This document shows, in pieces, positions 1,728-64,000 of a DNA stretch of 64,000 nucleotides. Numbering within the stretch: position 1 is the stretch's first letter; each line of letters starts with the position of its first letter. The notes below the pieces were generated by a model. The model saw only the letters and a program-made list of their open reading frames with translations, made no database searches and was not told where the DNA came from. Source of the DNA: Tubulanus polymorphus (taxonomy: Eukaryota; Nemertea; Palaeonemertea; Tubulaniformes; Tubulanidae). The DNA is taken from contig NC_134028.1 in NCBI RefSeq assembly GCF_964204645.1, forward strand, positions 10,021,001 to 10,085,000, given 5' to 3'. A program made the translations under genes and the position numbers.

Positions 1728-3857
1728 TTTAAACCCGAAAATCATATTCATACAGAAAAGTTAATGGTAACTCAAGAAGATAAATATAATTATGTAGTAC
1801 ATTATAGAATGTTAAAGTTTTATTTGAATCAAGGAATGATTCTAAAAAAGTACATAGATATATTTCATTCAGCCAATCTAAGTGGTTAGAAAAATATATA
1901 GATTTTAACACCAAACAGAGAACTGAAGCTAAAACTGATTTCGAGAAAGATTTCTTCAAGTTAATGAATAATGCATTCTATGGTAAGACTTGTGAAAATA
2001 TTAGAAATAGAAATGATATTGAGTTAGTTAGTAATGGTAAAAGAATTAGACATTTACAAACATATCCTAAATTTATGGGTAACAGAATATTTGATGAAAA
2101 TTTAGCCGCAGTTAAGATGAGAAGAACATCAATGAAATTAAATAAACCAATCTATGTTGGCGCTTCAGTTTTAGAATTATCAAAATTACTAATGTATGAA
2201 TTCTATTATAATGTATTACAACCACTTTTTGGAGAAAAACATATAGAAATATTATATTTTGATTCTGTTACAGCTGACACCCCAATATTTTTAAAATATA
2301 ATAATCAAATGTTAATTAGAAGAATTTCAGAAATAATTCCAAAACAAAATGAACTTTATATTTCGTATGGTGAAAAAGAATTAATACAAATAAATGGATT
2401 AATGGATGTTTGAACAAAAATGGATGGGTGAAATTAAAGAATATAATTAGACATAAAACGAATAAGAAAATCTATAGAGTTAGAACTAAATTAGGATTTG
2501 TTGATGTTACTGAAGATCATAGTTTAATTAAACAAAATGGTGATGAAATAAAACCAACTGATATAAAAATTGGAGACGAATTATTACATAAAAGATTTTT
2601 CCAAAGAATGAATCATATGTCATTTGATAAAATAATTGATAATGTTTATAATATAGAACCCGAAACATTGGAAGAAAAAGAATATTTTATCAAAGGATTT
2701 TTTATGGGCGATGGTTCAGCAGGTGTGTATAAATATGTTAGTGGAACTAAATATTGTTGGTATTTATGCAATCAAGATTTGAAATTATTAGAAAGAATTA
2801 AAAAATACTGTGAACAAGTTAATTCACATAAAACATTTAGAATCGGGGATTATATGAAATCATCACAATGTTATAGAATACATGTGAATAATCTAAAGAT
2901 TTTGCAATTAAATATAATGATGAATTCTATATTCATGCAATAGTGAAAAGTAATACTTCAACTAAAGAAAAGATAGTTCCAGATTATGTAATAAATGCAA
3001 AAGATAATTTTAGAAAATGGTTCTTCATTGGATTTTATGCTGCAGATGGTTCAAAAAACTATACAAAACAGACAACTATATCTTTGACACAAAAAGGAAA
3101 AGTTGCTATATCAGGATTAAATATATTATGCAATTCATTAGGATTTAATATGTTAGTTAATATTAGAAAAGATAAACCAAATGTATTTCAATTAACGCAT
3201 GTAGAAAATGAACTAACTGAAGAAGCTAGAGATTTATTTGAAATATCCAATCCTACAGAATATGTTTATGATTTAACAACTGAAGATGGTACATTTAATT
3301 GTGGATTTCCATTAATCATAAAAAATACAGATTCTTACATATTAAAGATAAAAACTGATAACATAACTGATGATTTAAAAAAATTAAAACATCATTTTGA
3401 TTTTAGTAACTATCCTAAAGATCATGAATTGTTTAGCAATGATAATAAAAAAGTTCCTGGTAAATTCAAAGATGAATTAGGTGGTGAAGGAATGATTGAA
3501 TTCATCGGTATTAGATCTAAAATGTATTCATATAAAACTAAAGAACATGAAGCTAAAAAGTTAAAAGGAATAACCAAAAGTGTAGTAGAAAAGAATATTC
3601 ATTTCAAAGATTACATCAATTGATTATTCAATGAAGAAGTTAGAAAACATAAGATGAGATGTTTAAGATCTGAGTACCACGAAATGTTTATTGAAGAAAT
3701 TGAAAAGATAAGTCTAAACCCATTTGATGATAAAAGATATATTCTGGATGATGGAATTCATACAGTTGCTTATGGTTGTAATTTAGATGAATACTTAAAA
3801 TTTAAAAGAGAAGAAACAAAAGAGAACGAGATAATGAAAAGAATTCTAACGTGTTAA
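1728..3857 (+). pseudogene. polB: Polinton DNA polymerase B, C-terminal part with intein (5'-truncated)
   Basis: Family B DNA polymerase that would replicate the element by protein priming. Sequence seen: a region upstream of palm motif B, then motif B as KLMNNAFYGKTCENI at about 1955-2000, then motif C interrupted by an intein (2264-3326), then the C-terminal domain to 3857. The exonuclease domain, zinc fingers and motif A present in copies C and D are missing; homology starts abruptly at about 1728. Disruptions: a frame break near 1890, a TGA in place of a conserved Trp codon at 2411, a one-base loss in an A-run just after it, a frame change near 2940, and a TGA at 3621. It overlaps no neighbour; a small plus-strand gene follows. 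Clearly a broken copy. Confidence 0.9.
2264..3326 (+). other. Intein with LAGLIDADG endonuclease, inserted in PolB motif C
   Basis: Protein-splicing element of about 350 codons lying between the first Asp and the Thr-Asp of the polymerase YxDTDS motif. It starts with Ser in block A (SVTADTP) and ends with Asn (LIIKN), followed by Thr as the +1 residue, the chemistry expected of an intein. A block-B-like VTEDHS (Thr and His) lies about 80 residues in. Two LAGLIDADG-type motifs are present, FIKGFFMGDGSAG at about 2686-2724 and FFIGFYAADGS at about 3022-3054, so a homing endonuclease domain is included. The insertion point matches the pol-c site known for archaeal and giant-virus polymerases. 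This copy has a nonsense codon and frameshifts, so it is unlikely to splice as written. Confidence 0.88.
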
Positions 3858-7964: not shown

Positions 7965-9591
7965 ATGGATGTAGAAGGTTGCGAAGATATTCCAATGGAT
8001 CCTTTAGATGAACCTGGTATAAGTGATGAACAACCACCTGATTTTGATGAAACAAGTTTTAGTAATGATAATAAAACAGAATATAATACTAATTTAGGTG
8101 AAGATGATGATTATGATGATGAAACGCGTAAAGAATTTAAAGAATATATGACAGCTACCGAAAGGATAGTTATTTGAACCGCAACATCTAGAAAGGATTT
8201 AATGAAAAGATTAGTAAATACAACTGATCCTCTTATGAAATCTCAATTAAAATTAATGAAAAATAGAGTAATATATACAATTGTTAACGTATTATTACCA
8301 AAAGATGTAATAGATGAAATTGGTTCAGAAGGTGTTGTAGAACAAATTTTAAAAGATGACCCATTTTTCATGAATAATTTAGAATTTAAAAATGATTCAT
8401 GGTATTATAATCTTGAATTAAATAGGAATACTGTATCAATTCAATTATCTAGAATGGGTCAAGAAAATATTTTTGAACCTGGAATGCGAGCATTATCTAC
8501 AATTGAACGTTCAAAAGGTGGTAGAGAATTTCTCAGAATTATATGGAATGCAATCGATAGAATAAATGAAGAAGAACCAATTCCTAGAATTGATATTAAC
8601 AAATATTCACCATTTAAAAATCCAAATTTAAATCCTAATGATGTTGATCCAGAAATGGAAGATCATAGAGATCGATTAGATAAATTAAGATCTTCAACGC
8701 CCGAAACATCGAGAAGAGACACTCAGCCAATTGATAATGATTCAAGTCAATTACAATTAGTATTAGAAAAACAAATTGATAGATTAAGAGATTCAGAAGA
8801 AGAGATGAATAGTACTGGAATAAATCGAATACAATCTTTACTAGAAAAAGGATTACTTGATTTAACTGATGATGAATTAGAAGCATTTCCTGAACAAACA
8901 CGTAGAGAAATTAAAGGTATGCAAGAATCATCTGGTGAAATTGCTAATATAAAGATGAGATTTTCTAAAATAACCATGTTAGAAAAAGAATTAACTAATG
9001 CAAATGAAGAATTAAAACAATTAGAATTAAATAGAGATCTTCAATTAATCGAGGAAGCTGATTATGAAAGCAGAAAGTTAGCTTTAGAAAAAGAAATAGA
9101 TGATTTAAAATATAACAAAGAATTACAGGAAAAAGAAAGAGATACATTATTAAAATCATATGATCTTAATCATATTAAAAAATTAAAAGTTATTTTTAAA
9201 GTTATTACTTAAATTAGAAGGAATAACAATTCTTTCAATTCTAACAGCTGTAACTATGTTATTTACAACAATTGGTTTAGCAATATCAAATGCTTTAAAA
9301 TCTACTCCTACTCCAAATAAACCGGATAAACCCCCGAATGATAATAATTCTATACAAGATAAAGTTAAAGATGGTTTAAAGAAATTAGCAAAATATTTAT
9401 GGGAACTATCTAAAAAATCTGCTGCAGCATTGCCAGGAATTATTGCATCAATTGTTGGTTTTATATTGAAATCTGCAGGAAACATTATTAACTTTGCTGC
9501 TGAACATATTATTTTATTTTTAATTACAGTTGTAAGTGCAATTATTTTTGGGTTAGTAAATATGATATCAAAAAATATCAAGCAAACATGA
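7965..9591 (+). pseudogene. Acidic / coiled-coil / membrane Polinton protein (frameshifted)
   Basis: Roughly 540 codons split into 7965-8177, 8202-9212 and 9200-9591. The N-terminus is strongly acidic (MDVEGCEDIPMDPLDEPG). The middle (8930-9190) is a long charged heptad-rich helix, probably coiled coil. The C-terminal 110 residues carry hydrophobic stretches (MLFTTIGLAISNAL, AALPGIIASIVGFIL, IILFLITVVSAIIFGLV). The same arrangement recurs at 46126-47567 and 52108-53575. Preceded by TTTTTTTATTATGTAAATG and followed directly by the capsid gene. A virion membrane or scaffold protein is plausible, not proven. Confidence 0.6.
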
Positions 9592-9625
9592 TAAAAAATA
9601 AATAATTAATTTTTTTGTTAAATAA

Positions 9626-10858
9626 ATGAGTGGGAGTTATATCAATCCTTCTAAGAATCATAGAATATCTAATGCTATTAAAGCAGAAAGATCACATCAT
9701 ATAATTACTCATAACCCTTCTAATATTAATCCCGATGAAACTTTATATGTTAGAATCCCTCGATTTACACAAAATACTTTTTATGTTCCAAATAGTATTT
9801 ATTTATCAGCCGATATAAAAGTAATCGGTAATAATAATAATTATGTTGTTGATAATGTTGGAAGATATTTGATTAAAAAGTTAACAATAAAGATTGGTCC
9901 AGAAACAGTTTTCTCATTCGATGATTATAATTTATTTATGCATTATAAAGATTTATGGTTAACTAAAGAAAATAGAAATAATATGATATTTCAAGGAATC
10001 CAATCAGAAAACCAAAATAAATTAAGATCAGAAGCACATAATGCAATATTAACTAATTCTGTAGATAAATTGATAAAAAGTATATATGGACGCAAATATA
10101 AAATTCCATTAGACTTTGAATTGATAAATATTAATGCGCCTTTATATAAATACGCAATTCAAGAAGACGTTATATTCGAAATAACATTTGCTCCTGTTAA
10201 TGAAATTGTAATAGCTAGCGTTAATAAAGATATGAGTTATAAATTATCGAATATATGTTTAGAATATGATACAGTAACTGATGAAAATATTTCAAGTATA
10301 ATTCAAACTAAATACAATCAAGGATTTTCATTATTATATGATTATATTGATAAATTTAAAACTGTAACTATTGATGCAAATGATGAAATAATTAATGAGA
10401 ATATTAACTTCCCAAGAAGATCTATTAAAGGTATATTAATATTTTTTACCATTGCAACATTTACTAATGGTGCAATAAATGTTGATAATTATTATAATCC
10501 TGAAATAACAAAAGTAGAAATAACTATCGAAGGAATAGCAAATAAAATATTTTGTCAAGGAATGAGAATGATTGATCAATGGCCAGAAATTAGAAAACAT
10601 TTTATGAATGAAAAAGTGAAATCATCTGAAAATTGTAATATTAATCAAATTGATTATTATACCGGCAATAAATATGCATTATGGTTAGATTTTAGAACAA
10701 CAGAGGATAATTCATTACATGGTTCTGGGAAAAAACTACAGAACACTAAAGATGGAATACAATTATTCATGACAAAGAATAAAGGAATCAAAAATTTTAA
10801 AATGCATATCTATATTATATCTGACGCACAATTAAATATTGTAAATTCTCTCTTGTAA
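9626..10858 (+). CDS. Probable major capsid protein, intact 410 aa
   Basis: Uninterrupted frame beginning MSGSYINPSKNHRIS, beta-rich, no membrane segment. It is the largest intact gene of the element, lies last in the plus-strand virion block, and is present in all gene sets here (copies at 47608-48864, 50844-52087, 54058-54530), as expected for the double-jelly-roll shell protein. Conserved landmarks include NINFPRRSIKGIL, GMRMIDQWPEIRKHF and LHGSGKKLQNTKDGIQ. It is shorter than typical Polinton hexon proteins, so structure prediction is needed to be sure. Start preceded by TAATTTTTTTGTTAAATAAATG. Confidence 0.65.
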   Translation: MSGSYINPSKNHRISNAIKAERSHHIITHNPSNINPDETLYVRIPRFTQNTFYVPNSIYLSADIKVIGNNNNYVVDNVGRYLIKKLTIKIGPETVFSFDDYNLFMHYKDLWLTKENRNNMIFQGIQSENQNKLRSEAHNAILTNSVDKLIKSIYGRKYKIPLDFELININAPLYKYAIQEDVIFEITFAPVNEIVIASVNKDMSYKLSNICLEYDTVTDENISSIIQTKYNQGFSLLYDYIDKFKTVTIDANDEIINENINFPRRSIKGILIFFTIATFTNGAINVDNYYNPEITKVEITIEGIANKIFCQGMRMIDQWPEIRKHFMNEKVKSSENCNINQIDYYTGNKYALWLDFRTTEDNSLHGSGKKLQNTKDGIQLFMTKNKGIKNFKMHIYIISDAQLNIVNSLL

Positions 10859-12079: not shown

Positions 12080-12691
12080 TTATTTTATAAATTTATATTC
12101 ATAGGGAAATTGTAATCTCAGTAATAATTTTGAACTTTTATTATTCTTTAATTTATTCATATATTCATCATGTAATTCAGTAGGTATAATTTGATTTTCT
12201 TCCAATGATTGTTGCATAGATTTTTTATCTTTGTTATAAAATAAAACTAGAAATCTTATATTCTCCCTAAAGTCTTTAACAATTGAATTATATTTTTGAT
12301 TTAAAACCCATGTTGTTATCCCAAAATGTCCTCCAGAGAAAGCTAGATAACATAACTCCCTTTCTCTAACTTTTGAATCATGTAGATTAGCACAATCATC
12401 TATGATAAATAATGTATTTGATCCTTTATAAGTATCAATTGCTATTTTTATACAATTATCTAAATTTTCTTTTACTGTTTTAGGATTTAATATAATAACC
12501 TTTTTCATCTTAACTATATCTCTATTATATGTTTTATTCATTTCATAAGTAGGACAAAATAATATTATATTATCAAAATGATTCTTATAAATAGTTTCTA
12601 ACAAATCTAATATGAAATGTGTTTTACCACAATTGGTTACACCAGTAACTAACATATTATGCGGTTCGAATATAAATAAATCTTTATTCAT
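12080..12691 (-). CDS. Packaging ATPase (A32/FtsK-HerA type)
   Basis: Intact 203-aa protein. Walker A is GVTNCGKTHF at residues 17-26; Walker B is TLFIIDDC at about residues 92-99; an aromatic/Asn motif (TWVLNQKYNS) follows as in sensor regions of this family. Its known role in Polintons and nucleocytoplasmic viruses is ATP-driven loading of DNA into the capsid. Its ATG overlaps the end of the integrase gene by 8 bp (AATGAATAA), so the two are probably co-expressed. Length is normal for Polinton ATPases. Confidence 0.88.
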   Translation of the reverse strand: MNKDLFIFEPHNMLVTGVTNCGKTHFILDLLETIYKNHFDNIILFCPTYEMNKTYNRDIVKMKKVIILNPKTVKENLDNCIKIAIDTYKGSNTLFIIDDCANLHDSKVRERELCYLAFSGGHFGITTWVLNQKYNSIVKDFRENIRFLVLFYNKDKKSMQQSLEENQIIPTELHDEYMNKLKNNKSSKLLLRLQFPYEYKFIK

Positions 12692-13776
12692 TTATTCTTT
12701 TAATTTTACTAGATAAAATCCATTCACTAAATTTATCATCATATCCTTTATATTTCACCAAAGAATACTTTTTTCCTTTAAGAGTTTTTGTTTTCAATAC
12801 TTTTTCTATTTTGTATTCTATTTCTTCTGGATTTGGTACAAATGATAATTCTTGTTCATAAAAATAACCTAATATTTCTTCATCTTTTAGATCTTCTAGT
12901 TTATAAACAAATGGTTTAGTTAATATTATCTTTTTAATCTTGAATAATTCTTCAGTAAAATTAGGGGTATAACCTTTATAAAATGTTTTTCGATATTTAG
13001 ATATTCTAACGTGTTGTCGTATTTTAAATTTAGGTTCTCCGAAATCATGTGTGACAAATGCGCCATATAAATTATTCCAAACTATTTCTGAATTATCTTC
13101 TTTTCTAGCTTGTATAGGTTTCATATTTATAGAACTATGTTTAGAATTATTATAACCTTTCACTAAATCATCTAACACATCGATATATTTATATGTTTCA
13201 TTAGCAGTAAAATATTTCCACATTCTAGTTTTCAATGTTTTATTAAACCTTTCTATAATAGATGCTTTTTTTATCTGAATGTGTTGAAAAATAATCTACA
13301 TCGTTATCAGATAATAGTTTTTTGAAATGTTTGTTATAAAATTCCTTACCTTCATAAAATTGTATCTTATCTGGAATAGCTTCTTTAAATATTTTCTTAA
13401 AAGCATTTGTAACTTCTATTCCAGTTTTATTTTTGATTGGAATTGACCATGCGTATCTACTGAATATGTCTATAACATTCAGTATCCAGAAATATCCTTT
13501 GTTGTATTCCTCTAAGTTCTTCATGTCAATTAAATCAGCTTGCCGTTGTTGATCAATATATGAAACCATAACTTTTCTTGTTAAATAAGTTTTATCCATT
13601 TTCTTATGGATTTGGTATGTTGGTTGATTTTGTAACCATAATCTTAGTTCACTATATTTTATATCACCATTTTCATTATCAGATTTAATTTCATTCCATA
13701 ATTCTGAAACGTTAGAATATGATACTTCACTCTCTGGGTTATGATACAACTCTCTTAAAAATTGTTCTTTTTTCAT
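12684..13776 (-). pseudogene. int: Polinton integrase (rve core plus chromodomain), frameshifted
   Basis: Retroviral-type integrase that inserts the element. N-terminal part is read at 13243-13776 and the C-terminal part at 12684-13235, in different frames; the break lies in an A-run near 13255. The first catalytic Asp is in QADLIDM. The second Asp position, QFDDG in copy E, is QFYEG here, so a catalytic residue is lost. The Glu-bearing ERFN segment falls at the frameshift. A C-terminal chromodomain is visible (KVLKTKTLKGKKYSLVKYKG, then WILSSKIK). Inactive in this copy. Confidence 0.88.
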
Positions 13777-18861: not shown

Positions 18862-20294
18862 ATGTCGGATTTAGAGTCAGATATTAGGTGAGATATGTTT
18901 TAAATATATGTTTAATGTCATGTGCCTGTATGGTGGCTGCTGCTTTGCCCTGGATAACATACAAACGCCTTGCTAGATATCCATTTTTTACTTCTTCTCA
19001 CCACAACTTGCACAAGTCACATATGTCAGAATGCTGCTGGCAATTGTTTGCCCACAACAATTATCCTGGTTCCTGAATCCTTGCGTCTTCTGGTTTTATC
19101 GTTCTCGGTCTTCCCTAAATACGCCAGTCAAAAGTCAAATATATTTAATATACATTGGTATAGCTATAGTTCATGAAGCCGTTCTTGTTAATTGAATATA
19201 ATGTGTTTTTTTTAATTTTCAGTTTGTTAATGCGTGAAAGTGAATCCAGTGATTCTGAATTAGAGGAAAATGGAGCAAATAATGAGACTAAGAAATCAGA
19301 TATATGCCTAAGCGATGAAAGCGATGAAGTGACGTCTCCGCCTCCCTGTAAAAAACAGAAGAGGACGCACTGGTCGAATAACGATTTAGATGACATTGTG
19401 GATATAATCGTGAATGATGAGTACCTTAAAAAACGTTTAATATTCATGAATGCAAAAAAACACAGAATATTATGGAAAAGTTCGGGATGAAATGAAGAAG
19501 AGAAATAAGACATTTAAATATTCACCAGTTCAGATTCGTAATAAATTTAAAAAGATGGTTGCAGAATGTAAAAAAGTGAGTCTAAGGTTGAAGACGGCAA
19601 CTGGAATTGATCGATTTATCGGGGAGCGCAATTATGGACAATGGTTCAAGCAACTGTTTCCCGTTGTTAAGACAAGACATGCATGTCAACCAGAAATGGC
19701 TATTGAACCAAGCACAGCTCCTAAGACAGAGTCCAAAATGAAGACACCTGAAGAAAAAGATTCAACAAATTTAACTGAATCTAATAAAACCAGGGCAACA
19801 AGCCCTAAGTGTGAAATAGCAAAGTTTGCCCCATCAGCGGAAATGAGCGCGAAAAAAAGGAAAGTCAAAGAGGAAAAAAACATGAAATGATTGAAATGAT
19901 GAAAAAAATAGCAGACCCAAATGACCCAACTGAATCCTTATTGAAATTCTTTCAAAAGGATAAAGAAAAGGCACGGGAACATGAACTAAAATTATTTGCT
20001 CTGTTGCTTCAGGGTCCTGGTTCAGTTCAAGCTCATGCTCCAGATTCTAGAATCCCAATCCCTTCTGTTAATGTACCAGGTCCTAGTTCTGCTCCAATCT
20101 ATCCTGGTCAAGGTAATTATTCCCTGCCAAATCCAATTCCTGGGCCAAGTGGGTATCAGCCCGAGGTATACCAACCCAATCTGAATACTTACCGGCATGC
20201 CTTTTCCCAAGGCCAACTTGGAGCTAGAAACTTCTTCGAAGATTTTCATAGGTCTGATTCCCAGGAAACTGAGAAACATTATGAATCTCTGTAA
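18862..20294 (+). pseudogene. Harbinger accessory SANT/MADF-like DNA-binding protein, spliced, frameshifted
   Basis: Exon 1 (18862-18887) encodes MSDLESDI and ends at a good splice donor (AG|GTGAGA). An intron to 19222 ends with TTTTAATTTTCAG. Exon 2 continues in frame with an acidic Ser/Glu region. The DNA-binding region follows (THWSNNDLDDIVDIIV ... RNKFKKMVAEC). Two one-base losses in A-runs, near 19460 and 19880, split the frame. The C-terminal part has a Lys/Glu helix (about 19900-20020) and then a Pro/Gly-rich tail. In this superfamily the protein helps the transposase enter the nucleus and bind the termini. The exon structure is inferred from sequence only. Confidence 0.7.
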
Positions 20295-20947
20295 TTTGTG
20301 AAAATGACGTGCAAGTACTTTCAAGTTACTTGTATTTGAAAAAAAAAACCCCGAAATATGCCTAAGTGGACTGTATGTGGAGTAAAGCCACTCCCGTGTG
20401 TAATTATGTTACTTTTTACCTTTAAAGGGGTAATTTACAGTACCTGCCTGCCACCCGGTCAGTTGCACTACACTAATTTTCTATTTGGTGAATCGATTAA
20501 TTGTATTTATCTTGATCAAAAAAGTTAAATTTAATTTTTAACCCAATTTCTGATTAATAAAATTCAGCGAGATTATTTATCTGTTTAGTGTATTGTCATT
20601 TCACTGAGTGGCAGCACAAGTCGTGTACATCGTCCCCCCAGTATTTTGTATCATCATTTCCTACCTGGCAGAGGTGTTAATCACTAGTGAAAATTTTATT
20701 CACGTGTTGTTTCAAGTTTTTTAGATTTTTATTAATCAATTACTTTACTTTCTTTTACGACCCTAAACTAATGGGATTTAATAAAACGAATTGTTGAAAT
20801 GTAATTGAAATTATTTTATTTTCATAATAATTTTACAAGAAAACTTTGTACTACAGAAGTAATTCATTTTAAACTCCACAATGAAAAATAAATTCTTAAA
20901 CTTTCATTGTATACAACGAGTTCAGTTAGTTATTTGTAGAAATACGA

Positions 20948-22268
20948 TTACGCATTCTCGTGTTCATCCCAGAGTTTATCAGTTAACTGTTGACGGATAA
21001 GACCTGCATTCCTTGATGAATCCCTGATAGGTGGGCCATTAATCAAATGGAGGATTTCTTCAATCTGTTCCCTAGGACGCCGCTCAATGGTGTTAACATC
21101 AAATGCAAGGTCAAGTTTTTTGGAAATTGTGTTCCCACGATCCATACAAATATTGTGTAGAATTATACAAGCAAGAGTTGTTATCCTGACGTTACAGGGT
21201 TCACATTCCGATTTCCTCATTAAAACCCTCCATCGTCCTTTAAGTTGGCCATAAGCCCCCTCGGTCACTATTCTACCGCGACTCAAACGAAAATTGAAGT
21301 TCCTCTGTTCAGGCGACAAAACAGCGTTAGTAAATGGTTTCATAAGCCAAGATTTAATGGGGAACGCAGAGTCACCCACAATAAGTGGGGGTATTCGCAC
21401 ACCATTCACATCAAAGTGGATATCAGGTAGAATGTCCCCATTAATAACATCATGCCAGAATTGAGTGGACTGAAATATTATCCCATCATGGGAATTTCCT
21501 GGGAACCCACATGAAGCCCACACAAACCGATACCTGGCATCTACTAGCGCCATGAGAATAACAGAATAAAAGTTTTTGAAGTTATGATAATCTTTCCTTG
21601 CAATGCCACCACCACGTGGGGACCTGATGGGGATGTGGCATCCATCAACGGCTGCCCAGGTGTAAGGAAACTGCCATAGTCCTCCATCTGTATTATTTTT
21701 TCTCTGAAGTCTTGCTCACTCTCAGGCATATGACGGCCAACACATTCTTCCCACATCTACAACATTTGTGACATCCCTGGTGATATTTCGGACGGTCGTT
21801 ACACCCAATCCCGTCATCTCGGATATTGTATAGAAATAATCACCGCGTGAGAGTCTATATAAAGCGATAGCTAATCTATGTTCTGGACTTATCGGCATTT
21901 CAGTCACAATTTCCTTTTCAAGACGGTGTTTAATTCGTTCTAATATATATGAGAATGTCCCTTTAGAAATTCTAAATGTTTTCTTAAACCGCTTCTCACT
22001 GTACTCCTCTGAAGCTAGACTAAACCAGCCTCTATTTCTGGGCAACCTTCGACAGGAACGTCCTCTCGGAATCTGTTGATTTTCTGCATAATTCGCGGCA
22101 ATTAAATTCAAAATCAATGCTCGTCGAATCCGGAACTGGTTTGCTTAAGCTATCATCATGCGTACCTTCAATGAACGTCTTCGACGTGCTTGGTCTAGAA
22201 TAATCTTGAGCAGTAACAGTCGTCTGTTTATAGCCGCCATTTTGCATTGTATGGCGCGTGTGTAGCAC
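20948..22268 (-). pseudogene. Harbinger transposase (DDE), frameshifted
   Basis: Read on the minus strand in three frame segments: 22268-22032, 22117-21722 and 21756-20948. The middle part holds a helix-turn-helix-like region (YRLSRGDYFYTISEMTGLGV). The catalytic core shows Asp in ALVDARYRF, Asp in IVGDSAFP and Glu in TEGAYGQLKGRW, followed by the ILHNICMD motif, all typical of the DDE_Tnp_4 family. Breaks near 22060, 21740 and 21550 make this copy inactive as written. Length is about 430 codons, normal for the family. Confidence 0.85.
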
Positions 22269-35200: not shown

Positions 35201-35510
35201 TTTAATACAAGAAACTTACCTTATTGCCCAGAACATTTAGTTGTAGGTGATAGTTATTTAAGTGAATACCAGAAGAAAATAAAACCGAAAGATCATGTTT
35301 TTACAGAAAAATTAATACTTACTCAAAATAATAAATACAATTATATTGTTCATTATAGAATGTTAAAATTTCATCTAAAACAAGGAATGAAATTAAAGAA
35401 AGTACATAGATATATTGAATTTAATCAATCGAAGTGGTTAGAAAAATACATAGATTTCAATACTCAACAAAGAACCATATCACAAACAGATTTCGAAAAA
35501 GATTTTTTTA

Positions 35511-37793
35511 AATTAATGAACAATAGTTTTTATGGTAAAACATGTGAAAATATTAGAAATAGAAATGATATTGAATTAGTAAATAATTCTGAAAGATTAA
35601 GACACCTACAATCAAGTCCTAGACATTTAGGAAAATAAAAGATTTGAAGATTATTTAACAGCAGTTAAATTAAAAAGAACATCAATGAAATTTAATAAAC
35701 CTATATTTATTGGTTCAACTGTTTTAGAAGTATCAAAATTATTAATGTATGATTTTTATTATAATGTTTTACAACCACTTTTTGGGGAAAAGCATATTGA
35801 AATATTATATTTTGATTCTGTAACAGCTGACACCCCAATATTATTAAAATGTAATGATAAAATATTGATGAGAAGAATTTCAGAAATAAAAACAAAACAA
35901 AACGAATGTTATATTTCATATGGTGAAAAAGAATTAATACAAATAAATGGTTTAATGGATGTTTGGACAAGAAGTGGATGGAAAAAATTAAAGAATATTA
36001 TTAGGCATAAAACAAATAAGAAAATCTATAGAGTTAGAACTAAATTAGGGTTTGTAGATGTTACAGAAGATCATAGTTTAATTAAACGAAATGGTGATGA
36101 AATAAAACCAACTGATATAAAAATTGGATATGAATTATTACATAAAAGATTTTTCCAAAGAATGAATCATATGTCATTTGATGAAATAATTGATAATATT
36201 TATAATATAGAACCTGATAATATGTTTGGGGTAATAAATATTGTTGGTATTTATGCAATCAAGATTTGATATTATTAGAAAGAATAAAGAAATATTGTGA
36301 AGAAGTTTATCCAAATAAAACATTTAAAATCATGGACGTTATCAAATCATCAGCAGTTTATAGAATACTTGTAAATAATCCTAAAGATTTTGCTATAAAA
36401 TATAATGATGAATTCTATATTCATGCAATAGTGAAAAGTAATACTTCAACAAAAGAACAGATAGTACCAGATTATGTATTAAATGCAAAAGATAATTTAA
36501 GAAAATGGTTCTTCATTGGGTTCTACGCAGCAGATGGTGCTAAAAAATTTACGAGTTCTCCAGCAATATCTTTAGCTCAAAAAGGAAAAGTTGCTATATC
36601 AGGGTTAAATATATTATGTAATTCATTAGGCTTCAATATGAATATTGGATTAAATTAATGAACAATAGTTTTTATGGTAAAACATGTGAAAATATTAGAA
36701 ATAGAAATGATATTGAATTAGTAAATAATTCTGAAAGATTAAGACACCTACAATCAAGTCCTAGACATTTAGGAAATAAAAGATTTGAAGATTATTTAAC
36801 AGCAGTTAAATTAAAAAGAACATCAATGAAATTTAATAAACCTATATTTATTGGTTCAACTGTTTTAGAAGTATCAAAATTATTAATGTATGATTTTTAT
36901 TATAATGTTTTACAACCACTTTTTGGGGAAAAGCATATTGAAATATTATATTTTGATTCTGTAACAGCTGACACCCCAATATTATTAAAATGTAATGATA
37001 AAATATTGATGAGAAGAATTTCAGAAATAAAAACAAAACAAAACGAATGTTATATTTCATATGGTGAAAAAGAATTAATACAAATAAATGGTTTAATGGA
37101 TGTTTGGACAAGAAGTGGATGGAAAAAATTAAAGAATATTATTAGGCATAAAACAAATAAGAAAATCTATAGAGTTAGAACTAAATTAGGGTTTGTAGAT
37201 GTTACAGAAGATCATAGTTTAATTAAACGAAATGGTGATGAAATAAAACCAACTGATATAAAAATTGGATATGAATTATTACATAAAAGATTTTTCCAAA
37301 GAATGAATCATATGTCATTTGATGAAATAATTGATAATATTTATAATATAGAACCTGATAATATGTTTGGGGTAATAAATATTGTTGGTATTTATGCAAT
37401 CAAGATTTGATATTATTAGAAAGAATAAAGAAATATTGTGAAGAAGTTTATCCAAATAAAACATTTAAAATCATGGACGTTATCAAATCATCAGCAGTTT
37501 ATAGAATACTTGTAAATAATCCTAAAGATTTTGCTATAAAATATAATGATGAATTCTATATTCATGCAATAGTGAAAAGTAATACTTCAACAAAAGAACA
37601 GATAGTACCAGATTATGTATTAAATGCAAAAGATAATTTAAGAAAATGGTTCTTCATTGGGTTCTACGCAGCAGATGGTGCTAAAAAATTTACGAGTTCT
37701 CCAGCAATATCTTTAGCTCAAAAAGGAAAAGTTGCTATATCAGGGTTAAATATATTATGTAATTCATTAGGCTTCAATATGAATATTGGATCG
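35511..37793 (+). repeat. Near-identical 1.14-kb tandem duplication inside PolB/intein
   Basis: Copy 1 about 35511-36652, copy 2 about 36653-37793. The only difference I found is one extra A in copy 1 near 35634. The junction near 36650 (GGATTAAATTAATG) shares ATTAAAT-type homology with both parents. Duplicates motif B, motif C and two thirds of the intein. Confidence 0.9.
35817..36650 (+). other. Partial intein (first tandem copy)
   Basis: Starts at the same Ser codon after the first motif-C Asp and runs to GFNMNIG, where the duplication junction restarts the polymerase at motif B. It lacks the C-terminal splicing block, so this copy could not splice. Confidence 0.85.
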
Positions 37794-37955
37794 ATTAAAT
37801 CTAAACCAAATTGCTTTAATTTAAGCCACACAGAAAAAGATTTAACTGAAGAAGTTAAAGATTTATTTGAAATATATAACCCAACAGATTATGTTTATGA
37901 TTTATCAACTGAAGATGGTACATTTAACTGTGGATTTCCATTAATTTGCTTCAAT
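36958..37955 (+). other. Intein in PolB motif C (copy C), endonuclease damaged
   Basis: Same insertion point and block A as at 2264-3326. Ends FPLICFN followed by Thr-Asp. Compared with copy A, about 65 bp are missing near 37355 (35+ codons downstream of the VTEDHS block), which removes the first LAGLIDADG motif and shifts the frame; the second (FFIGFYAADGA) remains at about 37651. Both tandem copies (this one and the partial copy from 35817) have the deletion, so it came before the duplication. Confidence 0.88.
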
Positions 37956-47607: not shown

Positions 47608-48864
47608 ATGAGTGGGCGTTATATCAATCCTTCTAAGAATCATAGAATATCTAATGCTTTTAAAGCAGAAAGATCACATCATATAATTACTCATAACCCT
47701 TCTAATATTAATCCTGATGAAACTTTATATGCTAGAATTCCTCGATTATCACAAAATACTTTTTATGTTCCAAATAGTATTTATTTATCAGCCGATATAA
47801 AAGTAACCGGTAATAATAATAATTATGTTGTTGATAATGTTGGAAGATATTTGATTAAAAAATTAACTATAAAGATTGGTCCAGAAACAGTTTTCTCATT
47901 AGATGATTATAATTTATTTATGCATTATAAAGATTTATGGTTAACTAAAGAAAATAGAAATAATATGATATTTCAAGGCATCCAATCAGAAAACCAAAAT
48001 AAATTAAGATCTGAAACCAATAATGCGTTAGTAGCTAATGATGTAGATAATTTGATTAAAAAGATTTATGGAAGCAAATATAAAATTCCATTAGCCCTTT
48101 GAATTGATAAATAATAATGCACCTTTATATAAATATGTAATTCAAGAAGATATTATATTTGAGATAACATTTGCTCCTGTAAATGAAATTGTATTATCCA
48201 GCGTTGCTAAAGATATGGGTTATAAATTATCGAATATATGTTTAGAATATAATACAGTAACTAATGAAAATATTGCTAACACAATTCAAACTAAATACAA
48301 TCAATGATTTTCATTATTATATGATTATATTGATAAATTTAAAACTGTAACTATTAATGCAAATGATGAAATAATTAATTAGAATATTAACTTCCCAAGA
48401 AGATCTATTAAAGGTATATTAATATTTTTTACCATTGCAACATATTCTAATGGCGCCATAAAGGTAGATAATTAATGATTAATTATTAATCCTGAAATAA
48501 CAAAAGTAGAAATAACTATCGAAGGAATAGCAAATAAAATATTTTGTCAAGGAATGAGAATGATAGATCAATGGCCAGAAATTAGAAAACATTTTATGAA
48601 TGAAAAAGTAAAATCATCTGAAAATTGTAATATTAATCAAATTGATTATTATATCGGTAATAAATATGCATTATGGTTAGATTTTAGAACAACAGAGGAT
48701 AATTCATTACATGGTTCTGGGAAAAACTACAGAACACTAAAGATGGAATACAATCATTCATGAAAAAGAAAAAAGGAAGCTTAAATTTTAAAATCCACAT
48801 TTATATTATATCTAACGCACAATTAAATATTGTAAATTCACAATTAGATAGTATTCAATATTAG
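47608..48864 (+). pseudogene. Probable major capsid protein (copy C), broken
   Basis: Homologue of 9626-10858 with the same start context (TTTTTTTGTTAAATAAATG). An extra base near 48090 shifts the frame; nonsense codons at about 48305 and 48380, plus stops in a mutated stretch near 48475 and a loss near 48725, follow. The C-terminus ends SQLDSIQY-like at the TAG at 48862-48864, slightly longer than in copy A. Confidence 0.7.
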
Positions 48865-49685: not shown

Positions 49686-50813
49686 TTATATATTTTTAAT
49701 TTTACTTGATAATATCCATTCATTAAATTTATCTGGCCATCCAACCCATTTTACTAAAGAATATTTTTTTCTTTTAACAGTTTTTGTTTTTAATACTTTT
49801 TCAATTTTTTATTCTTGTTCTAGATTTTCAGTAGTTAAACTTAATTCTTCTTCGTAAAAGTAGCCATCAACTTCTTCACCATCTAAATCTTCTAATTTAT
49901 AGACATATGGTTTTGTTGTTATTACCTTTTTTATTTTATATATTTCCCTAGTAAAATTTCGATCGTATCCTTTGTCAAATATCTTTTTATACTTAGAAAT
50001 TCTAACATTTTGACCAACTTTAAATTTAGGTTCACCAAATTCATCTACAAGAAATGCTCCATATAAATTATTCCAAACAATTTCAGCATTTTCAGGTTTT
50101 CTAGCATCAATAGGTTTCATTCCAATAGAAGAATGATAAGAATTATTATATCCTTCTATCAATTTTGGTAAAACATCAATCCATTTAGTAGTATTATTTG
50201 CTGTAAAATATTTCCACATTCTTGTTCTTAATGTTCTATTAAATCGTTCAACAACTGCTGCTTTTTTATTTGATTTTGTTGAAAAATATTTAATATTATG
50301 ATTATCTAAGAGTTCATGAACAAGTGAATTATCAAATTCTTTTCCATCATCAAATTGTATTTTTTCTGGTTTTAGTTTATCATCCGAAAGAAATTTTCTT
50401 AAAACATTTGATGTTTGTACAGCATCTTTTCTATAAAGTGCGAAACTCCATACGTAACGACTAAAATTATCAATTATATTCAATATCCACCAATAATCAT
50501 CATTATCTTTCTTAACATTTTTCATATCAATTAAATCTCCTTGCCACTGTTGATCTACATAACTTACCATAGTTTTACGAGTTTTATATTTTCTAACAAT
50601 TTTTTTATGTGTTGTGTATGTTGGTTGTTCTAACATAAATTCATTTATATCTTTATATTTAACTAAATTTTGTGGGATTATCTTATCTAATTTATCTTGT
50701 TTTACTTGACGCCATATATTTTTGTTAGCAGGATAAGCAACCGAACTATCAGGGTTGTAATATAAATTTCTTAAATATTGTTCTTTAGTATTAGGAGTTT
50801 TTTTACCACCCAT
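49686..50813 (-). pseudogene. int: Polinton integrase with chromodomain, almost intact (one stop)
   Basis: The best integrase in the window: 375 codons in one frame with a single TAA at 49809-49811 where the chromodomain begins. Catalytic Asp in WQGDLIDM (about residue 94), Asp in QFDDGKEF (about residue 157), Glu in VVERFNRTLR (about residue 192). The chromodomain (KVLKTKTVKRKKYSLVKWVG, then WILSSKIK) follows the stop. Starts MGGKKTPNTKEQYLRN after GATATATAAATG, just downstream of the capsid gene. Confidence 0.88.
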
Positions 50814-50843: not shown

Positions 50844-52087
50844 CTAATATTGAATACTATCTAATTGTGAATTTACAATATTTAATTGTGCGTCAGATAT
50901 AATATAAAAGTGCATTTTGAAATTTTTGTCTCCTCTTTTCTTTACCATGAATAATTGTATTCCATCTTTAGTGTTCTGTAGTTTTTTCCCAGAACCATGT
51001 AGTGAATTATCCTCTGTTGTTCTAAAATCTAACCATAGTGCGTATTTATTGCCGGTATAATAATCAATTTGATTAATATTACAATTTTCAAATGATTTCA
51101 CTTCTTCATATATAAAATGTTTTCTAATTTCTGGCCATTGATCTATCATTCTCATTCCTTGACAAAATATTCTATTTGCTATTCCTTCGATAGTTATTTC
51201 TACTTTTGTTATTTCAGGATTATAATAATTATCAACATTTATTGCGCCATTAGAATATGTTGCAATGGTAAAAAATATATACCTTTAATAGATCTTCTTG
51301 GGAAGTTAATATTCTCATTAATTATTTCATCATTTGCATTAATAGTTACAGTTTTAAATTTATCAATATAATCATATAATAATGAAAATCCTTGATTGTA
51401 TTGGGTTTAAATTGTGCTAGCAATATTTTCATTAGTTACTGTATTTTATTCTAAACATATATTCGATAATTTATATCCCATATCTTTAACAACGCTAGAT
51501 AATACAATTTCATTTACAGGAGCAAATGTTATCTCAAATATAATATCTTCTTGAATTACATATCTATATAAAGGTGCATTATTATTCATCAATTCAAAGT
51601 CTAATGGAATTTTATATTTGCTTCCATAAATCTTTTTAATCAAATTATCTACATCATTAGCTACTATTGCATTATTGGTTTCAGATCTTAATTTATTTTG
51701 GTTTTCTGATTGGATGCCTTGAAATATCATATCATTTCTATTTTCTTTAGTTAACCATAAATCTTCATAATGCATAAATAAATTATAATCATCTAATGAG
51801 AAAACTGTTTCTGGACCAATCTTTATAGTTAATTTTTTAATCAAATATCTCCCAACATTATCGACAACATAATTATTATCATGACCAGTTACTTTTATAT
51901 CGGCTGATAAATAAATACTATTTGGAACATAAAAAGTATTTTGTGTTAATCTAGGAATTCTAACATATAAAGTTTCATCGGGATTAATATTTGAAGGATT
52001 ATGAGTAATTATATGATGTGATCTTTCTGCTTTAATAGCATTAGATATTCTAGAATTCTTAGAAGGACTTATATAACTCCCACTCAT
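50844..52087 (-). pseudogene. Probable major capsid protein (copy E), lightly broken
   Basis: Open from the ATG at 52087 (context TTTTTTTGCTAAATAAATG) to 51446, then a TAA at that site. A second nonsense and a base change near 51410 and 51280 follow; the C-terminal 103 residues (51155-50844) are open and end LDSIQY. Confidence 0.7.
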
Positions 52088-52107
52088 TTATTTAGCAAAA
52101 AAATTAA

Positions 52108-58445: not shown

Positions 58446-58511
58446 TGAAATTGTTAGATTGTTGAGCATTTGAAACCACTTCCCAAGTGAGCATGGTGTC
58501 CCTGGACCCCT

Positions 58512-58975: not shown

Positions 58976-58982
58976 TTAAGTT

Positions 58983-60424: not shown

Positions 60425-63400
60425 ATGGGGGAGAATGAACACCAACCAGAAAACAATAATGTCAATAAAAATCAATATTATTGTCAATATTGTAAAAAAT
60501 ACATCGATACATCTCATAAAACACGACATGAAAAATCTGCAAATCATATAAAAAATGTAATAGATTTTGAAACTCCAGAAAATTCCAATGAAAGAAAAGA
60601 ACGATTAGAAAATATGAATGTGGATGAAATAAAATGTGAAGTTTGTAATGAATTTATAGTAAAAAGGAATTATAATAGACATCTCGAATCACAAAACATT
60701 ATAAAAATTTAAATAAAAATGTTTTAGGATTAGAATATTTTGATAATAAACCTCAACAAGTAAAAGAATCAACTTCAAAAACTAAATCCATTTCAAATAA
60801 ACCTTACACGGAAAATGTTAGAAATTATATTGATTCACTAGAAATAAAAGATACAATTGAAATTTTAGAAACATTACATAGTAAAATTGGTCCTGCAGCT
60901 ATTATATTTAGATTTTTTAAAGGTACAACAATAGAAGATTATAGTAAATTTAATGAAATAATAGAAAAAATACTTGATTTGATAACAGATGTTGAATATC
61001 CAAAAATTAGTATCTCTGGGAAAGTAAGTTTTATAAAGTCAGAAGAAAAAATGAATTATAATATTCAAACACTCTCTGAAGAAATAATTTCAAAAACACA
61101 AATAAAAGAGAAGTTAGAAAAAATATTTAATGAATTTAAACGTCATATTGAAGAAAGATATTTTGAGGGTTCTGGCTTAAAATTGAATGAAATTATATAT
61201 TTAGATTTAAATGTTTATAATACAAAAAGAAATAAAACATCAAAAAGTAATAAAATGTTTAAAAATGATTCAAACTTTACAACAGAAAAGGATATTAAAG
61301 CATCATCTTATATTAAATTACCATTTACAACAAAAGCAGTAATAAATATTCAAAATGAAGATAATAAATGTTTTCTATGGTCAATTATTAGTTGTTTACA
61401 CCAAACAGAAGATATGACGCATAGTTTTAGAATAACAAATTACCGGAAATATGAAACATTATATAAAATTGATCAATATCCAGTAACTATAAAAATGATT
61501 CCTAAAATAGAAAAAGTTAATAATTTAAAAATAAATGTATTCGAATTAATGCAATTACCAAAGACAAAAGGTGAAAATATTAAAGATTATACATTGGAAG
61601 CTTTATATTTAACAGAATATTATGATGATGAAAATGCTATAGATTTGTTATATTACAAAAAAGATGAAAATGAACATTATATGTGGTTAAAACAAATTGA
61701 TTTATTCTTTAGAACAGAAAGTGATCATCATCATAAAATTTATCTATGTAGAAAATGTTTATCTAAATTTATGACTGGGAATACATTACTAAAACATAAA
61801 GAATTATGTGATAATAAAGATTTTTGTAAATTAATAATGCCAACAGAAAAAGATTATAAATTGAAATTTACTAATCATAAATTTAAAAATATTGTTCCAT
61901 TTGTAATTTATGGGGATTTTGAATCGTTGAATAAAGAATTAACTGATCAAGATAGAAAAGAAATATATAACAAAAAGCAATTATTAAAATCAATGGATAA
62001 AGGAAGTGAATTAAATGAAGATATAATTCAAGACCCAACAATTATAAATACAATTAAAAAAGTTCATCAAAGAGCTGCTGCTTATGGAATTTATATAAAA
62101 TCAAATTATCCCGAATTATATGAAAGTCAATATATTTCTTTTAGAGGTGAAAATGTAGTTAATGATTTTTGTGATAAAATGATTGAATTAGAAAGTGATT
62201 CTGTAAAATTATTAAACAAAAATAAAAGAATAGTTATGACAAAAGAAGATGAAATTGATTTTAATTATGCAACATATTGTTGTTATTGTGAAAAACGTTT
62301 TTATTCATTTGATAAAAGAGTTAGAGATCATGATCATTTAAATTCAAAATATCGTGGAGCTGCTCATGAAGATTGCAATTTACAAGCTAAAAAAGTAAAT
62401 TTCGTACCAATATTATTTCATAATTTATCAGGATATGATACCCATCTATTTATAAAACAATTATCGGGAAAATTGGATGCAATTAATCAAGAAATAGAAG
62501 AATATAATGCTATGAATGAAGCAAATGTAAGAAAATATGATTTTAAACTATCAGCTAAAACATCTGAAAATTATATTTCATTTCAATTTGGTTGCATTAG
62601 ATTTTTAGATTCTTATAGATTTCTAGCAAATTCATTAGATATTTTATCAAAAAGTTTAGTTGATAATGATTTTGTTATAACTCGATATTATTATCCAAAT
62701 GACCAAGATTTTAAATTATTGAGATATAAAGGCGCAATACCTTACTCATTTTATAAAACGCATGATGATTTCAAAGAAACAAAATTATTAAAAGATCAAT
62801 TTTATGATAAATTAAAAGAGGAGTATGTGAAAGATGAAGTGTTTAATAGAACATAAATATTTTAAATATTTGGAACCATTTTAAGATGAAAAATCATGGT
62901 GAATTAGTTGATTTATATTTAAAATCAGATGTTATGATATTGGCTGATATATTTGAAAAATTTAGAGAAGTTAATTTGAATCATTTTAATGTTGATCCTT
63001 GTTATTGCTACTCTAGTCCTGGTTTAACCTGGCAATGTGGTTTAAAATATACAAATGTAGAATTAGATTTATTAAAAGAACCAGATATGGTTTTATTATT
63101 TGAAAAATCAATTAGAGGTGGAATTAGTGGTGTTATGGGAGATAGGTATTTTAAAGCAAATGATGAATATAAATTATTATATATTGACGCCAATAATTTA
63201 TATGGTTGGGCAATGATGCAACCTCAACCACATAAAAATTTTATATTAACAGACGTTGAAAATGGTGATAAAACTGATTGGGAAAGCGCAATTGCGAGTT
63301 TAAAAGATGAAGCACCAATTGGTTATTTCTTTGTAGTTGATTTAGAATATCCTGAAAATATAAAGTTTAAAACAAGAAACTTACCTTATTGCCCAAAACA

Positions 63401-64000
63401 TTTAACTGTAGATGATAGTTATTTAAGTGAATACCAGAAGAAAATAAAACCGAAAGATCATGTTTTTACAGAAAAATTAATACTTACTCAAAATAATAAA
63501 TACAATTATATTGTTCATTATAGAATGTTAAAATTTTATCTAAAACAAGGAATGAAATTAAAGAAAGTACATAGATATATTGAATTTAATCAATCGAAGT
63601 GGTTAGAAAAATATATAGATTTCAATACTCAACAGAGAACCATATCAAAAACAGATTTTGAAAAAGATTTTTTCAAATTGATGAACAATAGTTTTTATGG
63701 AAAAACATGTGAAAATATTAGAAATAGAAATGATATTGAATTAGTAAATAATTCTGAAAGATTAAGACATTTACAATCAAGTCCTAGACATTTAGGAAAT
63801 AAAAGGTTTGAAGATTATTTAACCACGGTAAAATTAAAAAGAACGTCCATGAAATTTAATAAACCAATATTTATAGGTTCAACTGTTTTAGAAATATCAA
63901 AATTATTAATGTATGATTTTTATTATAATGTTTTGCAACCACTTTTTGGGGAAAAGCATATTGAAATATTATATTTTGATTCTGTAACAGCTGACACCCC
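60425..64000 (+). pseudogene. polB: Polinton DNA polymerase B (copy D), partial, frameshifted
   Basis: N-terminus MGENEHQPENNNVNKNQYY with two C2H2 fingers (YYCQYC ... HEKSANH and KCEVC ... HLESQ) up to a frameshift near 60700. A long frame to 62856 holds the exonuclease motifs (VIYGDFESLN about 61906; FHNLSGYDTHLF about 62419) and an endonuclease VII-like segment (CCYCEKRF ... RDHDHLNSKYRGAAH about 62280-62370). A second frameshift near 62855 leads to an open frame from 62886 to the window end with palm motif A (LLYIDANNLYGW, about 63176) and motif B (KLMNNSFYGKTCENI, about 63676), then motif C with the intein. The missing 3' part is outside the window. Confidence 0.9.
63981..64000 (+). other. 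Start of a third intein copy (cut by window end)
   Basis: The codon for Ser after the first Asp of motif C, then VTADTP, exactly as at 2264 and 36958. Only the first few residues are inside the window. Confidence 0.8.

What the first reader, a model, noticed from the sequence alone, without database searches (positions are those of the whole stretch)
2264..3326. Intein in the catalytic motif C of a Polinton DNA polymerase in an animal genome
All three PolB copies (2264, 36958 and 63981) carry an insertion between the first Asp and the Thr-Asp of YxDTDS, starting with Ser and (where visible) ending with Asn before Thr. Block A, a VTEDHS block B and two LAGLIDADG motifs are visible. This is the pol-c insertion site known from archaeal and giant-virus family B polymerases. 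Inteins are essentially absent from animal nuclear genomes, so a virus-like transposon carrying one in an animal is unusual and suggests transfer from, or shared ancestry with, large-virus polymerases.
Basis: partly seen in the sequence, partly recalled or inferred. Interest (0 to 1): 0.9.

Follow-up and report, generated by a model that had tools for sequence, protein, structure and literature searches.

The report
Intein in an animal's Polinton polymerase
A self-splicing protein insert (an intein), of a kind best known from giant viruses, sits in the DNA polymerase of about three hundred copies of a virus-like transposon in an animal genome, beside many copies without it, and it appears to have moved from one transposon subfamily to another.

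Summary
Window 2264-3326 is an intein between YFD and TDS of motif C (pol-c site) of a protein-primed, Polinton-type family B polymerase. Uninterrupted copies elsewhere in the same genome encode 355 aa: Ser1, TEDH block B, two LAGLIDADG motifs, Asn355, Thr+1. TIGR01445 and LAGLIDADG_3 score above their curated cut-offs. The host is an animal (39 Wnt exon matches). The genome holds 309 matches to the intein's 5' junction, and at least 150 polymerase copies (list cap) match an intein-free relative straight across the same site. In 32 uninterrupted copies the intein is under purifying selection (dN/dS 0.21; endonuclease part 0.23). The window's first copy is a transplant: its flanks belong to the intein-free subfamily (best 97-98%; mean 80-81% to intein-bearing copies), while its intein is 88% (mean; best 90%) identical to the other subfamily's. 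Homing or gene conversion would leave this pattern. The protein-primed polymerases' inteins form a clade beside, not inside, the sampled giant-virus-type pol-c inteins; the polymerases themselves are not giant-virus-like. Both complete window copies are broken. Splicing and cutting are inferred, not assayed.

The parts
1964..2263 (+). Polinton PolB, N-extein of copy 1, up to ...ILYFD (subfamily A type)
   Evidence: over 330 bp 97% identical to intein-free copy L117, mean 81% to 69 other intein-bearing rows
2264..3326 (+). Intein, copy 1 (1063 nt; interrupted by a stop and frame changes). S1 at 2264, last Asn 3324-3326
   Evidence: an uninterrupted relative in the same genome matches TIGR01445 and LAGLIDADG_3 above cut-off
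2500..2523 (+). Block B region (VDVTEDHS)
2946..3326 (+). Second LAGLIDADG motif and C-terminal splicing region
   Evidence: LAGLIDADG_3 E 5e-4 and Hom_end E 4e-3 on the piece 2946-3620, both just under their cut-offs
3327..3623 (+). Polinton PolB, C-extein of copy 1, from TDSYILK
   Evidence: over 280 bp 98% identical to intein-free copy L110, mean 80% to 60 other intein-bearing rows
35817..36640 (+). Intein copy 2a, 5' part; first unit of a tandem duplication
   Evidence: 35508-36640 equals 36650-37781 at 99.9%; junction match G000:C4:10056808
36958..37955 (+). Intein copy 2b (998 nt, shortened and with a frame break), subfamily B polymerase
60425..63980 (+). Polinton PolB, copy 3, up to YFD (with frame changes)
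63981..64000 (+). Intein copy 3, first residues; runs off the window
   Evidence: beyond the window the protein match goes on without stops (G000:C4:10084681-10085388)
12080..12691 (-). A32-like packaging ATPase of a Polinton copy
   Evidence: PF04665 E 4e-11, 43.2 bits over cut-off 22.8
12684..13776 (-). RVE integrase with chromodomain (two frames)
   Evidence: PF00385 22.4 bits (cut-off 25.1) and PF00665 28.2 bits (cut-off 32.6), both below cut-off
49809..50813 (-). RVE integrase of another Polinton copy
   Evidence: PF00665 42.7 bits, above cut-off 32.6
51446..52087 (-). Probable Polinton major capsid protein (also 47608-48102 and, by DNA similarity, 9626-10858)
   Evidence: PF16903 Capsid_N E 0.0017 and 0.0009, below cut-off; 9570-10436 pairs with 51277-52143 at 92%

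Best explanation
It is a pol-c intein carrying a LAGLIDADG homing endonuclease, living inside the replicative polymerase of an endogenous Polinton. The polymerase is made as a precursor whose catalytic motif C is split after the first Asp. The intein removes itself (Ser1 acyl shift, transfer to Thr+1, Asn355 cyclisation) and rejoins YFD to TDS. Its endonuclease is inferred to cut intein-free YFD/TDS alleles so that repair copies the intein in. One subfamily of Polintons (B) carries the intein in roughly 300 copies; a second (A) is mostly intein-free and was entered at least twice, the window's first copy being one of the results. Shown: insert, site, residues, selection, empty sites, and (for most of the insert) more recent ancestry of the inteins than of their host genes. 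Inferred: splicing, cutting, and that the transfer was by homing.
For: Profile hits above cut-off. Exact empty site: the nearest public polymerases lacking it (P0121-P0123, 72% identical over 529 aa) read YFDTDSYILK, and 20 of 20 sampled intein-free loci of this genome read Y-F/L-D-T-D-S/A. In 32 uninterrupted copies T83, D85, H86, D150, D262, D337, N355 and T+1 are 32/32, S1 30/32. dN/dS 0.21 over the intein (bootstrap of pN/pS 0.19-0.30), 0.19 Hint-N, 0.23 endonuclease, 0.19 Hint-C. The insert splits the two catalytic Asp of motif C, so an unspliced product should be a dead polymerase, yet the flanks are strongly conserved (dN/dS 0.04 and 0.11). Mobility: third-codon-position identity of copy 1 to 34 B copies is 0.675 and 0.650 in the flanks, equal to the A-B background (0.667, 0.639), but 0.820 in the intein; Fisher p 6e-8 to 7e-3 against each of the 34 (not independent). 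Ten places, copy 1 included, match an A-type N-extein plus intein at 89-100%, then a gap to 81%. Inteins of 5 of the 6 A-type copies with both ends found form one clade (100/100); the sixth, L128, lies inside B inteins.
Against: No RNA, protein, splicing or cleavage data. The penultimate His of canonical inteins is missing (K 27, V 4, F 1 of 32), though 103 of 115 PF00136-borne pol-c inteins have K there too. S1 is lost in 2 of 32 otherwise open copies. All 6 A-type inteins with both ends found carry frame lesions, so no working A-type copy was seen. The closeness of copy 1's intein to B is uneven: ten bins read 0.89 0.93 0.95 0.95 0.92 0.85 0.93 0.81 0.75 0.84, so the stretch at about 745-960 nt is no closer than the flanks. 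Ordinary recombination between elements could move an intein without its endonuclease. Only part of the copies was read.
Confidence: 0.88

Rival explanations
1. The intein is real, but it reached subfamily A by ordinary recombination or gene conversion between multicopy elements, not by endonuclease-driven homing.
For: Hundreds of related copies offer many partners. L128 has an A-type N-extein, an intein from within B and, judged by its TDAYILK junction, probably a B-type C-extein, which is what one crossover would leave. The similarity of copy 1's intein to B is uneven along its length.
Against: For copy 1 both flanks are A-type: the C-extein from its first bin (0.90 to A, 0.71 to B), the N-extein up to about 55 bp before the junction; the last 55 bp do not tell A from B (0.91 and 0.89). 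Endonuclease residues are 32/32 conserved and that part has dN/dS 0.23, expected if it is used.
Confidence: 0.3
2. The intein was already in the common ancestor of subfamilies A and B and was lost from most A copies (vertical descent with loss).
For: Related Polinton polymerases P0001, P0002, P0036 and P0181 carry it too, so it is old in the group.
Against: A- and B-borne inteins are more alike than A and B polymerases at third positions (0.82 against about 0.66), and L128's intein lies within B inteins.
Confidence: 0.1
3. An ordinary, unspliced insert of the polymerase with intein-like sequence.
For: The penultimate residue is not His; no splicing assay exists.
Against: It splits the catalytic motif, begins and ends with splicing residues, matches intein profiles, and is precisely absent from close relatives.
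Confidence: 0.03
4. Contamination or mis-assembly: viral or microbial DNA, not part of an animal genome.
For: Low G+C (about 24% against 31-41% around).
Against: Intein copies lie on each of contigs C1 to C12 of a 268 Mb genome with Wnt genes, and in the window between other transposons and repeats.
Confidence: 0.01

Closest known systems
Mimivirus PolB intein and other giant-virus-type (PF00136-borne) pol-c inteins
   Same: Same site (YGD|TDS), similar length (351 aa in Mimivirus, PMC549080, passages read; P0102), Ser1, Asn last, Thr+1, penultimate Lys usual (103 of 115), LAGLIDADG_3 listed for many; P0102 is 38% identical. Of these rows only P0102 bears a name; 'giant-virus type' is my label for the rest
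   Different: Host polymerase is PF00136, not protein-primed PF03175; those inteins form a separate clade (97/96); Mimivirus is a large virus of amoebae, not a transposon in an animal chromosome
Inteins in other Polinton-type polymerases from public unnamed contigs (P0001, P0002, P0036, P0181) and in a distant pPolB (P0003)
   Same: Same site; P0001, P0002 and P0003 fall in one intein clade with the window's (100 SH-aLRT; 94/78); P0001 64% and P0002 49% identical
   Different: Source organisms not named; P0002 keeps the canonical His-Asn end; P0036 and P0181 are cut short and were not in the intein trees; P0003's polymerase is only 21% identical to the window's
Homing-endonuclease insertions in Polinton pPolB (Jeong et al. 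2023, not held; cited in PMC11071308, passages read)
   Same: Nuclease domains inserted in Polinton polymerases, which PMC11071308 suggests 'result from intein invasions'
   Different: As recalled from the Jeong abstract (not checked here) those are HNH and VSR nucleases; the passages of PMC11071308 that I saw describe no LAGLIDADG pol-c intein, no intein-free alleles in the same genome and no selection test
Fungal nuclear inteins (PRP8, VMA; names from paper listings and recall)
   Same: Inteins in eukaryotic nuclear genomes (Green et al. 2018, PMC5784728, passages read)
   Different: In host genes of fungi; [quoted passage not shown]

Membership tests
Intein | N-terminal splicing region (blocks A, B) with Ser/Cys1 and TxxH | tested here: met
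   TIGR01445 33.5 bits over cut-off 24.5; S1 30/32, T83 and H86 32/32
Intein | C-terminal Asn followed by Ser/Thr/Cys+1 | tested here: met
   N355 and T+1 32/32
Intein | Penultimate His | tested here: not met
   K/V/F in 32 of 32; evidently not required in this subgroup, since 103 of 115 PF00136-borne pol-c inteins have K and 4 have H
Intein | Precise in-frame insertion; homologues lack it | tested here: met
   P0121-P0123 and 20 of 20 sampled intein-free loci uninterrupted at the site
Intein | Protein splicing activity | not testable with these tools
   needs expression of the intein in a reporter
Intein | PF14890 Intein_splicing profile | tested here: inconclusive
   E 3e-7 but 30.7 bits, below cut-off 35.8
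Intein | Hint fold | not tested
   no structure was predicted; by sequence the archaeal intein PI-PkoII (2cw7) is the best solved match
pol-c intein allele | Insertion after the first Asp of motif C (YxD|TDS) | tested here: met
   site definition in PMC549080 (passages)
LAGLIDADG homing endonuclease | Two LAGLIDADG motifs with acidic residues | tested here: met
   PF14528 32.7 bits over cut-off 22.5, two stretches; D150 and D262 32/32
LAGLIDADG homing endonuclease | Cuts the intein-free allele | not testable with these tools
   only the sequence outcome (transferred intein) was seen
Polinton (Maverick) | Protein-primed PolB (PF03175 type) | tested here: met
   67.3 bits over cut-off 25.8 on an uninterrupted copy
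Polinton (Maverick) | RVE integrase, A32-like ATPase, capsid genes | tested here: met
   PF00665 and PF04665 over cut-off; the capsid match PF16903 is weak, below cut-off
Polinton (Maverick) | Terminal inverted repeats and target-site duplication | tested here: inconclusive
   window elements are nested and truncated; no clean terminal repeat pair was made out; target duplication not looked for
Animal host | Metazoan-specific genes | tested here: met
   39 Wnt exon matches, about 11 genes by position, 0 of 14 control genomes; one Wnt-5 exon has gastropods as nearest named hits, 75% and 71%

The most novel reading that the evidence does not exclude
A three-layer parasite: an active homing intein that spreads as a selfish gene among hundreds of germline copies of a virus-like transposon in an animal nucleus, keeping both occupied and empty alleles side by side, so that homing of an intein can be watched as a population process within a single genome; and protein-primed polymerases hold their own, so far unrecognised, branch of the pol-c intein family outside giant viruses.
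Probability: 0.6. Interest if true: 0.9.

Novelty: new variant of a known kind. Interest (0 to 1): 0.8.

Why it matters
Inteins have been described as absent from metazoan genomes (PMC5784728, passage). Here the junction of one occurs in 309 places of an animal genome, with at least 150 empty sites in the same nucleus and a conserved endonuclease. That makes long-standing questions testable: whether inteins home in animal cells, how a homing gene persists without fixation, and whether virus-like transposons carry inteins between host groups, as Ogata et al. proposed for DNA viruses (PMC549080, passages). It also adds a branch to the pol-c intein tree outside giant viruses and archaea.

Tried and rejected
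Direct Pfam scan of the window's own pieces gave only sub-threshold intein and LAGLIDADG hits, because the copies are broken; an uninterrupted copy from the same genome settled it. A frame lesion shared by the A-type inteins (a dead or frameshift-decoded progenitor) was considered because several have 1063 nt; apart from a one-base difference at the very end, seen also in B copies, no indel is shared between two of the six. Nesting of the Polinton inteins inside a giant-virus group, suggested by a similar 'FNTGFPLIVKN' end, was not found in the careful tree; the earlier quick tree put one PF00136 row, P0012, beside them at SH-aLRT 90. The archaeal root is a long branch, so the root is unsure (warning). 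IMG/VR scans: with one intein, 4 loci, of which 2 contigs (one present twice) carry pol-c inteins in other family B polymerases and one is unrelated; with P0002, none; with the intein alignment, 11 loci, and in genome contigs 8 archaeal loci. Solved structures: PI-PkoII is the best match. Terminal inverted repeats were not resolved. COX1 for the host's identity was asked for repeatedly and 18S rRNA once; neither was answered (not completed). Papers: searches (held open-access library only; mostly listings seen, passages of six papers; a seventh, PMC4028283, holds neither 'intein' nor 'homing endonuclease') showed no report of an intein in an animal Polinton; Jeong et al. 2023 and Kapitonov and Jurka 2006 are not held, so this does not show absence from print.

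Rows dropped: of 635 hits, 120 are listed; 118 inteins were cut out by a rule that demands D-S/C at the start and N-TDS at the end (so first and last residues of those rows are built in); 84 rows went into the quick tree and 39 hand-picked P rows, 3 window-genome copies and 8 loci into the careful one; of the 19 loci L079-L097, 8 were used. In one search, 14 of 122 exteins remained after removing near-copies. L046 was left out of the flank and intein comparisons (aberrant); 5 of 76 intein-bearing rows had no 5' junction by the pattern; two of the 69 B rows (win2b and L001) are the two halves of window copy 2. L129 and L132 gave only the 5' junction. L001-L008 were top hits and L009-L014 were picked for long frames; of the 60 copies taken at spread ranks (L019-L078) 25 were uninterrupted.

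Full report
WHAT IS THERE. At 2264-3326 the polymerase gene of a Polinton is interrupted between the Asp and the Thr of YFD|TDS. The same junction occurs at 35817, 36958 and 63981. Copy 1 is interrupted by an in-frame stop and frame changes, copy 2 by a frame break and a shortening, copy 3 leaves the window. Elsewhere in the same genome open copies exist: 32 of 74 loci read are uninterrupted through the insert and at least 10 codons on either side, 25 of the 60 taken at spread ranks. The full insert is 355 aa, matches TIGR01445 (33.5 bits, cut-off 24.5) and LAGLIDADG_3 (32.7, cut-off 22.5), and lies below cut-off on PF14890. The flanking polymerase is PF03175 (67.3 bits, cut-off 25.8). Nearby window genes are an RVE integrase and an A32-like ATPase above cut-off and a weak capsid match below it, so the element is a Polinton; its ends were not resolved.

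HOST. The window is part of a 268 Mb assembly of 77 contigs. It has 39 Wnt exon matches, about 11 genes by position, and none in the 14 control genomes. One Wnt-5 exon is nearest, among named sequences, to the snails Biomphalaria (75%) and Bulinus (71%), then to an octopus (64%) (120 of 315 hits listed, many unnamed, only proteins of similar length findable). I infer an animal, perhaps a lophotrochozoan; the species is unknown.

COPY NUMBERS. The 5' junction pattern with up to 2 mismatches has 172 + 137 = 309 matches, and 0 in the reversed control. A 160-aa piece of an intein-free relative (P0122) matches 150 listed places (the cap; 1703 candidates) straight across motif C, many in frames of 1350-1360 aa. 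So occupied and empty sites coexist in large numbers.

RESIDUES AND SELECTION. In the 32 uninterrupted copies T83, D85, H86, D150, D262, D337, N355 and T+1 are invariant and S1 is kept in 30; the penultimate residue is K 27, V 4, F 1. Nei-Gojobori dN/dS over all pairs: N-extein 0.04, intein 0.21 (Hint-N 0.19, endonuclease 0.23, Hint-C 0.19), C-extein 0.11 (pairs are not independent, and open copies were selected). Both the splicing and the endonuclease parts are thus constrained. The closest two of the 32 differ by 0.7%, the median pair by 6.2%, which suggests amplification until recently.

EMPTY SITE. The public polymerases nearest to the window's (P0121-P0123, 72% over 529 aa) read YFDTDSYILK. 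Among the 120 listed relatives (of 6650 hits) 4 carry an intein by motif (P0001, P0002, P0036, P0181), 53 are clearly uninterrupted and 63 were unclear by the first pattern; a looser pattern gave 70 with DTD and 46 other, some of them ending before the motif. In this genome 20 of 20 sampled intein-free loci read Y-F/L-D-T-D-S/A.

TRANSFER BETWEEN SUBFAMILIES. Flanks fall into two subfamilies, about 80% identical in DNA: A (the 20 intein-free loci) and B (69 intein-bearing rows in the N-extein tree). Window copy 1 is A-type on both sides (97% to L117, 98% to L110, both intein-free; mean 81% and 80% to B), but its intein is 88% (mean of 61; best 90%) identical to B inteins. At third codon positions copy 1 against 34 B copies gives 0.675 (N-extein), 0.820 (intein), 0.650 (C-extein); the A-B background is 0.667 and 0.639; B against B is 0.869, 0.889, 0.934, so unequal rates do not explain it. 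Fisher tests against each of the 34 give p from 6e-8 to 7e-3, median 7e-5 (not independent). Against this stands that the closeness is uneven: in ten bins along the insert copy 1 against B reads 0.89 0.93 0.95 0.95 0.92 0.85 0.93 0.81 0.75 0.84, so the stretch at about 745-960 nt is as far from B as the flanks are; and the last 55 bp of the N-extein are too conserved to tell A from B (0.91, 0.89).

A genome search with copy 1's own piece lists 10 places, copy 1 included, at 89-100% identity before a gap to 81% (150 of 1229 candidates scored); 7 of the other 9 were fetched and all have A-type N-exteins (28 rows: 20 intein-free, 8 intein-bearing, SH-aLRT 100). Five of those gave both ends; with copy 1, 5 of 6 inteins form one clade (100/100), while L128's lies within B inteins (99/87). 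The N-exteins of the 8 are scattered among the intein-free ones (8 changes, shuffled mean 7.8), though starred branches force only one (quick tree). All 6 inteins carry frame lesions, no internal one shared. Reading: at least two entries into A, the first by an unbroken intein. Homing is the simplest mechanism; plain recombination is not excluded, and L128 looks like a longer tract.

RELATIVES. In the careful tree of 50 inteins those of protein-primed polymerases form a clade (94/78) beside the PF00136-borne pol-c inteins (97/96), together separated (100/98) from IMG/VR and archaeal ones. P0003, whose polymerase is only 21% identical to the window's, has an intein inside the pPolB clade (97/87), so the intein seems to have moved between distant protein-primed polymerases. 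Lack of the penultimate His is usual in the PF00136-borne group (103 of 115 Lys, 4 His). Mimivirus' intein (351 aa, YGD|TDS) is the named reference (P0102; PMC549080, passages).

PRIOR KNOWLEDGE. Green et al. [quoted passage not shown] PMC11071308 (passages) says that Polinton pPolBs contain diverse homing endonuclease domains and suggests intein invasions, citing Jeong et al. 2023, which is not held. The nuclease inserts are therefore foreshadowed. A LAGLIDADG pol-c intein with splicing residues, with empty alleles in the same animal genome, under selection and on the move, did not turn up in searches.

LIMITS. No wet data; species unnamed; a sample of the copies only; subfamily of unread places judged by identity; the tree root is unsure because of long branches; intein-free B copies were not sought; no structure was predicted.

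Noticed in passing
window 35508-37781: A 1.13 kb tandem duplication (99.9% identical units) inside PolB copy 2, covering the N-extein and most of the intein; very recent or an assembly artefact.
   Followed up: partly
window 42253-44337: Penelope-like element: reverse transcriptase ORF (PF00078, E 5e-10) followed by a frame that looks like a GIY-YIG nuclease by eye.
   Followed up: partly
window 19170-22144: Harbinger-like DNA transposon (DDE_Tnp_4, E 5e-19, minus strand) in the host-like stretch, with plus-strand ORFs beside it.
   Followed up: partly
window 55600-59000: Repetitive open frames (units like ...RDNSLFWFYRPRQF...) with strong AT skew (-0.31 in 56001-58000).
   Followed up: no
L111 (G000:C8:3465248-3465727): Intein-free polymerase with an A-type N-extein but a B-like start of the C-extein (TNDITKDLK), a possible recombinant right at the intein site.
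   Followed up: no
L015 and L017 (IMG/VR contigs): Viral-contig family B polymerases with pol-c inteins; the one in L017 is short (about 159 aa), without an apparent endonuclease.
   Followed up: partly
P0127: A UniRef protein labelled Sulfurimonas sp. is 58% identical to the Polinton polymerase, probably eukaryotic contamination of a bacterial record.
   Followed up: no
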